From: Sulfurovum sp. UBA12169
GTDB lineage: Bacteria > Campylobacterota > Campylobacteria > Campylobacterales > Sulfurovaceae
DNA: 64,000 nt
NCBI GenBank assembly: GCA_002742845.1
Contig: DLUH01000001.1
Location: forward strand, 246,501-310,500
Direction of reading: 5' to 3'
Shown here: piece after piece, positions 1 to 22,370 of the stretch
Numbering within the stretch: the first letter of the stretch is position 1
Layout: every line of letters begins with the position of its first letter
Program-made: the position numbers and the translations under genes
Notes under the pieces: model-generated
Told to the model about the DNA's origin: nothing
Database searches by the model: none
The model's input: the letters and a program-made list of their open reading frames with translations, nothing else

Positions 1-128
1 GCCGGATAGGCAGCTTAGAAACAAAATGCGCTTTCTATTGTGCTTCTTATTTGGTACACTGCCGGATAAGCAGCTTAGAAATTGTGAAAATCCCGAATTA
101 ATACGAGATAGCAGTACACTGCCGGATA
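1..128 (+). CRISPR. Distal end of a type I-F-like CRISPR array (partial)
   Basis: Two repeat units are visible plus a truncated third. The first (1-21) lacks its first 7 bases because the window begins inside it. The second is a full 28-nt unit (54-81). The third starts at 114 and matches only about 15 bases before diverging. The two spacers, 22-53 and 82-113, are each exactly 32 nt. The repeat has the CTGCC...GGCAG stem, the start GTACACTGCC and the end CAGCTTAGAAA, close to the known I-F consensus, which also has 28-nt repeats and 32-nt spacers. The middle unit has a G-to-A change in the stem. Polarity and decay place the leader and cas genes upstream, outside the window. No cas gene is visible here. 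Confidence 0.88.
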
Positions 129-411
129 TAATGTCCCCGTTTGTCAAGACAGATTTTTGAGAACTTCTTATCATTACCATACAAGCCAAACCACAGACCT
201 AGAAAAGTGCTGAATTACAAAATACTGTATGAGGTATTTTTTACAGAATTTGCTAAAGTTTTAGCTGCTTGATTGAGGTGGAATTGCACTTGTGATTAGA
301 ATTGGCAAGTTTATTTAATCCGTTCAAAACCAATGGTGACAGTCGTGGTGACACTAAGAAAACTTTAAGTTTTTGAAATCTTCTGAAAGTACGGCTTTTG
401 GGAGGTTAAAT
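129..411. other. Non-coding stretch between CRISPR end and tRNA-fMet
   Basis: No credible gene. The last CRISPR repeat stops abruptly and is followed by an unrelated segment (TGTCCCCGTTTGTCAAGACA at 132-151) that looks like an insertion-sequence end, but no partner end or transposase was found. A short open stretch of about 24 codons ending near 379 could be a recombinase tail or chance. The position beside the 3' end of a tRNA gene is a classic island boundary, but I see no duplicated tRNA end. Confidence 0.4.
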
Positions 412-488
<77 letters not shown>

Positions 489-522
489 ACAGATGAAAAA
501 AAGAAGGATTTAAAAATCCTGG

Positions 523-20364: not shown

Positions 20365-21951
20365 ATGGGATATTCTCATTGGGCAGCCGGCGCTTTGATG
20401 GCGGGGATAATGATATTCAACGGCTGCGGCGGCGGTGGAGGCGGAGGAGAAGCCGAAACATTAAATCAAGCTCCCACAGCAGACGCAGGGATAGATAAAA
20501 GCATACAGGTGAATCAAACGGTAAATATTGTCGGAAGCGGCAGCGATGCAGACGGAACCATTGCAAGCTATCAATGGAAAAATGGCAGCACGGTTTTAGC
20601 CAATACGGCTTCATTTGACTACACCCCGTCCACAGCCGGCATTCATACATTAACTCTCACCGTCACCGACAATGAAGGCGCAACGGACAGCGACACGATG
20701 AATGTGACAGTCACGGAAGCAAATACGGTGCAAAGAGTGATGCCGCTTGCGGTTATCCGCATAGAGTTTGATGATTATCAGTTTGACAGCTCTGCTTCTG
20801 AGTGGAATCAAAAAATATTCGGCTCAAATGAAGGGGGATTGAACGATTATTATCATGAAATTTCTTACGGTACATTTCAATTCCGACCCGCCACAGAAAC
20901 AAACGGAGAGAATGACGGCATCATTACGGTGCATCTTGATGAAAACCATCCCGATGAATTGCAAACAAAGATAGACAGATTAAAAAATGCGGCCATACTC
21001 GCAGACGAATATATCGATTTTGCACAGTATGATACCGACAAAAACGGAGCAATAAGCTCCAATGAGCTTCAAATCATGTTTTTAGTGGCTGGCGGCGAGC
21101 TTGCAACGTCAGCTCATCCCGGAATTTGGGCGCACCAATGGTGCATGGACACATCAATCAATGTCGGACCTCCCAAACTTGATAATGTCACTCTCATGAG
21201 CTGCGATTATGAAGGGGTATATGCGGCTTTTGGCGAAAAACATTTTGATGCTCTTACGGGCAACGATGCTACCGTAGGGATTATCGCTCATGAGCTGGGG
21301 CATGCAGTATTTGGTTTGCCGGATCTTTACGATACAGACGACAGCTCAGAGGGTATCGGCAATTTCGGTTTGATGGGCGCAGGAAGCTGGGGGTATAAAG
21401 AAGGAGAATTTTATGGCGCAACACCGGTGCATATGACAGGATGGAGCAAAGCATACAGCGGTTTTGTTGTGCCGGCCGTCGTTACTGATGCCCAAGAGTT
21501 GCAGATAAAAGCCGCTTCTTCGACAGGTTACACACTCTATAAGATTCCGACCGGTCGCAGTGGCGAATATTTTTTAATAGAAAACAGAGCTAACAGCGGA
21601 TACGATAGGGGATTATATATCCTTAAAGAGTTGGGTGATTTTGAGGGGGGATTGTCTATTTTGCATATCGATGACACTCTGTTGCCCGGCTGCATCACCA
21701 CAAACAGCTGCAACGAAAACGAATCCCATAAACTAGTTGATATAGAAGAGGCCAATCGTCCGGGACTGGATACCAATAAACACAGAGGAGACTACCTAAA
21801 TCTCTTTTTTCAAGCAAACAACGCAAGTTTTACGCCCTCTACCGATCCAAACTCAGACCGATATGACGGTTCTGACAGCGGTGTAAACATCACAAATATT
21901 TCCGGCCCCGGAGATATCATGAGTGCAGATTTGACAACAGAAACCAACTAA
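20365..21951 (+). CDS. PKD-domain M6-type metalloprotease lipoprotein
   Basis: 528 residues. The N-terminal hydrophobic segment ends in a lipobox with Cys21 and a polyglycine stretch, so the mature protein is probably lipid-anchored. A PKD domain follows (~33-117, NQAPTADAGIDKS to TLTVTDNEGATDS). The protease domain has HELGHAVFGLPDLYD from His309, the zinc motif of the M6/immune inhibitor A family, then FGLMGAGSWG. It lacks the conserved N-terminal propeptide-like domain usually fused to M6 proteases; a matching small protein is encoded 12 nt downstream. Signal: unusually few positive residues at the N terminus. Role: extracellular proteolysis, substrate unknown. Confidence 0.85.
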   Translation: MGYSHWAAGALMAGIMIFNGCGGGGGGGEAETLNQAPTADAGIDKSIQVNQTVNIVGSGSDADGTIASYQWKNGSTVLANTASFDYTPSTAGIHTLTLTVTDNEGATDSDTMNVTVTEANTVQRVMPLAVIRIEFDDYQFDSSASEWNQKIFGSNEGGLNDYYHEISYGTFQFRPATETNGENDGIITVHLDENHPDELQTKIDRLKNAAILADEYIDFAQYDTDKNGAISSNELQIMFLVAGGELATSAHPGIWAHQWCMDTSINVGPPKLDNVTLMSCDYEGVYAAFGEKHFDALTGNDATVGIIAHELGHAVFGLPDLYDTDDSSEGIGNFGLMGAGSWGYKEGEFYGATPVHMTGWSKAYSGFVVPAVVTDAQELQIKAASSTGYTLYKIPTGRSGEYFLIENRANSGYDRGLYILKELGDFEGGLSILHIDDTLLPGCITTNSCNENESHKLVDIEEANRPGLDTNKHRGDYLNLFFQANNASFTPSTDPNSDRYDGSDSGVNITNISGPGDIMSADLTTETN

Positions 21952-21963
21952 AAGGAATCAAAC

Positions 21964-22335
21964 ATGAAAAGATTAATTTTATTTATAAGTATGCTAACGT
22001 TCGCATTTTCTGTACCTGCTTTTCAAGGTTCTTTAGAATTTAAACAAAATGACGGTTCAGCCTTTCAGGGAAAACTCAAAGGCGATGAATGGTTCAATTG
22101 GATCGAGGACAATGAGGGGCATATCATAAAATACAACAATAGCTCTAAAAACTATGAATACGCCAAAACAGAAGAAAAAAACGGTACGCTGGAGCTGATA
22201 CCTTCGGGTGTTAAAGTCCAAAGAAGCGAAGCGCTTGATCGTAATGCGTCAGAACTTTTTAAAATTGACCCTCAGCTTCTGCGAAAGATCTGGAAACAAA
22301 AAAGAGAAAAAGCATACCGATACAAAGCAAAATAA
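21964..22335 (+). CDS. Secreted protein resembling the M6-protease N-terminal (propeptide-like) domain
   Basis: 123 residues with a signal peptide (MKRLILFISMLTFAFSVPAF). The stretch FKQNDGSAFQGKLKGDEWFN followed by WIEDNEGHIIKYNNS matches the pattern (QPDG.....LxGDExxxWxEDxxGYxI) found at the N terminus of many M6 metalloproteases. It lies 12 nt after an M6 protease that lacks this part, so the propeptide or chaperone appears to be a separate protein. The function is inferred; the C-terminal ~40 residues are basic and unrecognised. The operon ends at the terminator 22346-22370. Confidence 0.7.
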   Translation: MKRLILFISMLTFAFSVPAFQGSLEFKQNDGSAFQGKLKGDEWFNWIEDNEGHIIKYNNSSKNYEYAKTEEKNGTLELIPSGVKVQRSEALDRNASELFKIDPQLLRKIWKQKREKAYRYKAK

Positions 22336-22345
22336 AAGTTGGGCC

Positions 22346-22370
22346 AGAGGTTTATTTAACCTCTTTTTTT
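22346..22370 (+). terminator. Rho-independent terminator of the M6 protease operon, overlapping the murA 3' end
   Basis: AGAGGTT and AACCTCT pair around a 5-nt loop and are followed by six T. The stem lies partly within the last codons of convergent murA, so the sequence serves both as terminator and coding region. Confidence 0.8.

What the first reader, a model, noticed from the sequence alone, without database searches (positions are those of the whole stretch)
20365..22335. M6 metalloprotease whose propeptide-like domain is a separate gene
Most M6 proteases carry an N-terminal domain with QPDG...GDE...W.ED..GY.I. Here the protease has a PKD domain there instead, and the missing domain is a separate 123-residue secreted protein 12 nt downstream. 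A trans-acting propeptide could hold the lipid-anchored enzyme inactive until both meet outside the cell. To my knowledge this split has not been described for M6.
Basis: partly seen in the sequence, partly recalled or inferred. Interest (0 to 1): 0.6.

Follow-up and report, generated by a model that had tools for sequence, protein, structure and literature searches.

The report
M6 protease with separately encoded pro-domain
In this Sulfurovum-type bacterium, and in dozens of relatives, a membrane-anchored zinc protease has lost the front domain that related enzymes carry, and that domain is made instead as a small exported protein from the next gene, probably to keep the enzyme in check from outside the chain; the pairing is clearly real, but the inhibition has not been tested.

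Summary
Window 20365-21951 encodes a predicted lipoprotein with an M6 domain (TIGR03296, 157 bits, intact HELGH). Window 21964-22335 encodes a 123-aa Sec-exported protein, 12 nt downstream, with no Pfam or NCBIfam hit. A profile of such small proteins matches the N-terminal domain of one-chain gammaproteobacterial M6 proteases (best E = 4e-18). The window protease and its split relatives show no such domain (E >= 1).

The split is not peculiar to this genome. In 200 genomes of one Campylobacterota family the small gene occurs in 58 and an M6 gene in 59, with 58 shared. In 55 of 57 loci read, an M6 gene lies on the same strand just upstream; 49 of these are within -4 to +11 nt. In nine M6-bearing genomes with the fused form, the only profile match is the M6 reading frame itself. 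Nearly all split proteases carry a lipobox.

Best explanation: a trans-acting pro-domain that binds the lipid-anchored enzyme in the periplasm, giving latency and perhaps folding help. Homology and pairing are shown; inhibition is inferred, and no interface could be read. The PKD domain is incidental. A simple break would leave the domain upstream, so the locus was rearranged. Closest precedents: SpeB/Spi and serralysin/AprI.

The parts
20365..21951 (+). M6 metalloprotease gene, 528 aa, predicted lipoprotein
   Evidence: TIGR03296 157.2 bits; orthologues 80% identical in Sulfurovum MAGs
20365..20427 (+). lipoprotein signal peptide ending at Cys21 (FNGC)
   Evidence: sequence; lipobox in 9 of 9 first-set intact split proteases and 45 of 53 further ones by pattern, 6 more by eye
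20464..20712 (+). PKD domain (residues 34-116)
   Evidence: PKD_4 E=7.8e-12, K319L-like_PKD 4.6e-13; fold match to ColH/ColG PKD, Z 13.2
20755..21615 (+). M6 catalytic domain (residues 131-417)
   Evidence: TIGR03296
21016..21075 (+). EF-hand-like calcium loop inside the M6 domain (residues 218-237)
   Evidence: EF-hand_5 E=3.9e-4, below gathering score
21289..21303 (+). HELGH zinc-binding motif
   Evidence: sequence; HExxH present in 55 of 55 further split proteases
21952..21963 (+). 12-nt intergenic stretch with AAGGA ribosome-binding-like site
   Evidence: sequence; gap -4 to +11 nt in 49 of 55 pairs
21964..22335 (+). separate pro-domain-like protein, 123 aa
   Evidence: profile match to fused M6 N-terminal domains; modelled as six strands plus two helices, as in the fused domain
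21964..22011 (+). Sec signal peptide of the small protein; mature N terminus about V17-P-A
   Evidence: sequence; (A/V)-P-A conserved in 66 rows: P18 85%, A19 92%
22045..22101 (+). QNDG...GDEWFNW signature (residues 28-46)
   Evidence: G40 in 100%, W46 in 94%, F34 in 91% of 66 rows
22270..22329 (+). C-terminal helix (residues 103-122)
   Evidence: model of the read-through chain
22346..22364 (+). intrinsic terminator-like hairpin closing the two-gene unit
   Evidence: 7-bp stem then T-run (4 such sites found, 2.4 expected in shuffles, so weak alone)

Best explanation
The pair is a split zymogen: a lipid-anchored M6 protease whose N-terminal pro-domain is encoded as its own exported protein in the same operon. 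Shown by computation: the small protein is homologous to the N-terminal domain of one-chain M6 proteases; the protease lacks it; the two genes are kept together, almost always protease first. Inferred: both are exported by Sec, meet in the periplasm, and the small protein binds the catalytic domain, helping it fold and/or covering the active-site cleft until the lipoprotein reaches its place and the small protein is lost or degraded. In one-chain relatives the domain is followed by a long, poorly ordered linker, so a cleaved one-chain enzyme would look much like this pair. A possible reason for the split, also inferred: the domain starts at the signal-peptidase cut in fused enzymes and so takes up the N terminus, which a lipoprotein needs for its anchor.
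For: Homology over nearly the whole small protein, including part of the C-terminal helix region; a whole-genome profile search finds only the M6 frame in nine fused genomes and a separate short ORF in split genomes. Same order of six strands and two helices in both models. Flexible linker, pLDDT below 50 at 119-134 of the fused model. Co-occurrence 58/58 and 58/59 with 141 genomes lacking both; 55 of 57 loci with an M6 upstream, 49 within -4 to +11 nt. Purifying selection on both genes. The unit also occurs in two Gammaproteobacteria. In G1153 the only small gene and the only M6 gene are unlinked, and G034 has two tandem M6 genes with one small gene, which fits action in trans. M6 enzymes are known to lose N-terminal residues on maturation: purified PrtV starts at residue 106 (PMC2613228).
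Against: No inhibition, binding or cleavage is shown. The fold match to the InhA2 zymogen (Z 27, 349 residues) most likely reflects the catalytic domain; the beta domain is not shown to match the InhA pro-peptide. No conserved Cys or His in the small protein points to a known switch residue.
Confidence: 0.55

Rival explanations
1. The small protein is a folding helper only (a trans-acting intramolecular-chaperone domain, or foldase) and does not hold the mature enzyme inactive.
For: Pro-domains commonly help folding (established knowledge); strict co-occurrence fits a protease that cannot fold without it.
Against: Does not by itself explain why a small compact beta domain with a strongly conserved mature N terminus is kept; the two roles are not exclusive.
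Confidence: 0.2
2. The small protein is a lasting subunit of the mature enzyme, for example for substrate choice or stability, rather than a removable pro-domain.
For: The domain is conserved over its whole length and kept in cis in fused enzymes; PrtV fragments stay associated after autoproteolysis (PMC2613228).
Against: In fused enzymes it is tied on by a long, poorly ordered, presumably cleavable linker.
Confidence: 0.17
3. A periplasmic self-protection inhibitor that arose by copying the domain out, acting like AprI: the N-terminal residues made by signal peptidase enter the zinc site.
For: Small, exported, all-beta core, conserved A/V-P-A mature N terminus a near-constant 10-12 residues before QxDG in split and fused forms; AprI precedent (PMC4070987).
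Against: No sequence link to the Inh family (Pfam scan); no structure of the complex; differs from the best explanation mainly in the binding element.
Confidence: 0.15
4. Chance neighbours, a broken gene or an assembly artefact.
For: None beyond the unusual layout.
Against: About 66 pairs in many independent genomes, purifying selection, gene order that a simple break cannot give.
Confidence: 0.01

Closest known systems
One-chain M6 proteases with the QPDG N-terminal domain (TIGR03296 proteins such as those in L074, L073, L049, L050)
   Same: Homologous catalytic domain and homologous QxDG...GDE...W domain
   Different: Domain in cis, N-terminal, starting at a signal-peptidase I-like site; here it is a separate downstream gene and the protease is a lipoprotein
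InhA2 zymogen of Bacillus (PDB 4yu5, 4yu6)
   Same: M6 catalytic fold (Z 27 for the fused relative); latent form with an N-terminal pro-peptide
   Different: Pro-peptide in cis; no demonstrated match between its pro-peptide and this beta domain
SpeB/Spi of Streptococcus pyogenes
   Same: Small specific inhibitor gene transcriptionally coupled to its protease gene (PMC3462683); Spi resembles the SpeB propeptide (own knowledge, not checked here)
   Different: Cysteine protease that keeps its own propeptide; Spi is thought to act in the cytoplasm
Serralysin/AprI (Inh family)
   Same: Small periplasmic protein encoded near a zinc metalloprotease; mature N-terminal residue coordinates the zinc (PMC4070987)
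   Different: No Inh Pfam match; M10 protease; inhibitor is not a detached domain of the protease family
Potempins/KLIKK proteases of Tannerella forsythia
   Same: Bicistronic protease plus dedicated small inhibitor (PMC7296668)
   Different: Inhibitor is the lipoprotein and precedes the protease; here the protease is the lipoprotein and comes first

Membership tests
M6 metalloprotease (NCBIfam TIGR03296) | Profile score above the curated cut-off | tested here: met
   157.2 bits against 110.8
M6 metalloprotease (NCBIfam TIGR03296) | HExxH zinc motif | tested here: met
   HELGH at 21289-21303
Immune inhibitor A peptidase M6 (Pfam PF05547) | Match to the narrower Pfam model | tested here: not met
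   No PF05547 hit up to E=10 for the window protein; fused relatives score just over the cut-off at 22.5 bits
QPDG N-terminal domain of M6 proteases | Sequence homology of the small protein to that domain | tested here: met
   Split-protein profile hits fused M6 N termini, E=4e-18 to 4e-9 for the best four
QPDG N-terminal domain of M6 proteases | Located in cis, N-terminal to the catalytic domain | tested here: not met
   Separate downstream ORF; none found in the protease
Zymogen pro-domain | Inhibits the catalytic domain | not testable with these tools
   Needs biochemistry; model too weak for an interface
Bacterial lipoprotein | Signal peptide ending in a lipobox Cys | tested here: met
   FNGC at residues 18-21; -3 residue F is not ideal, but close relatives have LAGC and LNGC
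Inh/AprI inhibitor family | Pfam Inh profile match | tested here: not met
   No Inh hit in Pfam scans of eight small proteins
Inh/AprI inhibitor family | Mature N terminus coordinates the catalytic zinc | not testable with these tools
   No complex structure
InhA-type pro-peptide | Fold match to the InhA2 pro-peptide | tested here: inconclusive
   Fused model aligns to 4yu5 over 8..509 with 349 residues, range ends only

The most novel reading that the evidence does not exclude
A widespread class of split zymogens in which the pro-domain was moved off the chain so that the enzyme's N terminus could be lipid-anchored, and in which the pro-domain's own signal-peptidase-made N terminus plugs the zinc site in trans.
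Probability: 0.15. Interest if true: 0.72.

Novelty: new variant of a known kind. Interest (0 to 1): 0.52.

Why it matters
Protease pro-domains are nearly always studied in cis, where inhibition, folding and cleavage are hard to separate. Here nature has cut the domain off in about 66 natural pairs, with fused relatives for comparison, so binding, inhibition and folding can be measured with two clean proteins. It also gives a name and a partner to a small protein family that Pfam and NCBIfam do not cover, and links lipid anchoring of a surface protease to the separation of its pro-domain.

Tried and rejected
PDB sequence search with the small protein and its profile found nothing credible. Pfam hits of small proteins were all chance level. 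Structure prediction of the window pair as a read-through chain (TAA read as Q, genes in frame) gave a good small domain (blocks 77-89) but a poor catalytic half, so an interface claim was dropped. Fold searches were dominated by the PKD and catalytic domains and did not test the beta domain. The tree of catalytic domains has long branches: one origin of the split is not rejected (AU p 0.49) but not shown either. Weak profile hits in G302, G349, G133, G177 and G004 were set aside as chance. Paper searches found no description of a split M6; the library holds open-licence papers only, and the InhA2 zymogen paper is not held. Coevolution between the partners was not attempted: too few pairs.

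Full report
What is there. The window holds two genes on the plus strand, 20365-21951 and 21964-22335, 12 nt apart. The first encodes 528 residues: a signal peptide ending in a lipobox-like FNGC at Cys21, a PKD domain (34-116) and an M6 catalytic domain (131-417, 157.2 bits, cut-off 110.8) with HELGH. The narrower Pfam model PF05547 is not reached. The second encodes 123 residues with a Sec signal peptide and QNDG...GDEWFNW, and has no family match. A terminator-like hairpin follows at 22346-22364. Neighbours are an AIR-synthase-type gene, truD, an EPSP-synthase-family (murA-like) gene and a UvrD-type helicase gene. Orthologous neighbourhoods in records titled Sulfurovum (L014, L015) suggest the organism is of that kind.

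The small protein is the missing domain. A profile from 11 small proteins of split pairs matches the N termini of fused gammaproteobacterial M6 proteases with E = 4e-18 (L054), 6e-14 (L049), 4e-10 (L057) and 4e-9 (L050). The best of the shuffled control sequences had E = 3.1. The same profile, and one widened with fused domains, gave nothing in 12 split proteases (best E = 1). In whole-genome searches, nine genomes with fused enzymes had a single match, inside the M6 reading frame; genomes with split enzymes had it in a separate short frame. Predicted structures agree: the fused domain (residues 21-118) and the window small protein show the same order of six strands and two helices.

The arrangement is conserved. 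First relatives: Sulfurovum L014, L015 and L017, Campylobacterota L016, G186, G034, G049, G331, G370, and a gammaproteobacterium L018. In 200 genomes of one Campylobacterota family, 58 have the small gene, always in a frame of 108-180 aa; 59 have an M6 gene; 58 have both and 141 neither. Fisher p is 5e-50, or 1e-34 for the better-assembled genomes (38 with both and 99 with neither, taking the two counts of 38 as the same genomes). These p-values ignore shared ancestry. Of 57 loci read, 55 have an M6 upstream on the same strand, 49 with a gap of -4 to +11 nt; all 55 keep HExxH. A second gammaproteobacterium (G1096) has the pair as well. Both genes evolve under purifying selection.

What the PKD domain is. 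It is not what replaces the lost domain. Most split proteases have only a linker of about 24-60 residues between the lipobox Cys and the catalytic domain; a few have Ig-like, PKD or low-complexity stretches. What they share is lipidation: 9 of 9 intact N termini in the first set (L033 by eye, CVAC), and 45 of 53 further ones by pattern with six more by eye (L116, L134, L135, L140, L143, L150), leaving L109 and L146 unclear. In fused enzymes the domain begins 9-12 residues before QPDG, at a signal-peptidase I-like site. One fused protein (L069) has a possible lipobox, so the contrast is strong but not absolute.

How it probably arose and works. In fused enzymes the domain is N-terminal; in split pairs its gene is downstream. 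A simple stop codon would leave it upstream, so a rearrangement or copy-and-loss is needed (inference). The fused model shows a low-confidence linker after the domain (119-134, pLDDT below 50), which fits a cleavable joint. M6 enzymes are known to be trimmed at the N terminus: purified PrtV starts at residue 106 (PMC2613228). I therefore think the small protein is a pro-domain acting in trans: it meets the lipoprotein in the periplasm, assists folding and/or blocks the cleft, and is later lost. The homology and pairing steps are shown; binding, inhibition and removal are not. G1153, with its only small gene and only M6 on different contigs, and G034, with two M6 genes and one small gene, fit a diffusible partner. 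The conserved mature N terminus (P18 85%, A19 92% of 66 rows) makes an AprI-like plug possible: in AprI the residue exposed by signal peptidase coordinates the zinc, and N-terminal fusions block inhibition (PMC4070987). This part is a hypothesis.

Compared with the known. Paired protease/inhibitor operons exist: SpeB/Spi and staphopain/staphostatin (PMC3462683), potempins/KLIKK proteases (PMC7296668) and serralysin/AprI. In those cases, as far as I know, the protease does not lack its own pro-domain in favour of the partner. The searches made here found no report of a split M6. I file it as a new variant of a known kind: an M6 zymogen system with its pro-domain in trans, function inferred.

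Limits. No interface could be computed, no coordinates were available, and the tree does not settle whether the split arose once.

Noticed in passing
L129 672-1166 minus (G1153); G1142:C56:30260-30601 (in L124): Copies of the small protein with no M6 gene beside them, next to the same conserved neighbours (a ribosome hibernation factor-like and a YaaA-like gene, named by eye); both genomes have M6 genes elsewhere.
   Followed up: partly
L013 1270-2643 and L008 1213-3507 (G034): Two tandem M6 lipoprotein genes followed by a single small-protein gene.
   Followed up: partly
L076 98-1366 (G370) and second M6 genes in G1126, G1130, G1149, G1249, G1269: Extra M6 genes without a small gene of their own, in genomes that have one pair elsewhere; several sit in long frames (up to 920 aa).
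   Followed up: no
L008 1213-3507: The M6 lipoprotein of G034 has a very long Gly/Asn/Asp-rich repeat between lipobox and catalytic domain.
   Followed up: no
L131 (G1257), L135 (G1134), L140 (G1147), L136 (G1143): M6 frames that end early or lie further from or across the small gene; L131, L135 and L140 look like frameshifts, L136 like an over-long start call.
   Followed up: partly
L018 (Gammaproteobacteria MAG) and L154 (G1096): The pair also occurs in two Gammaproteobacteria of one order (2 of 83 genomes), which may be horizontal transfer of the pair as a unit.
   Followed up: partly
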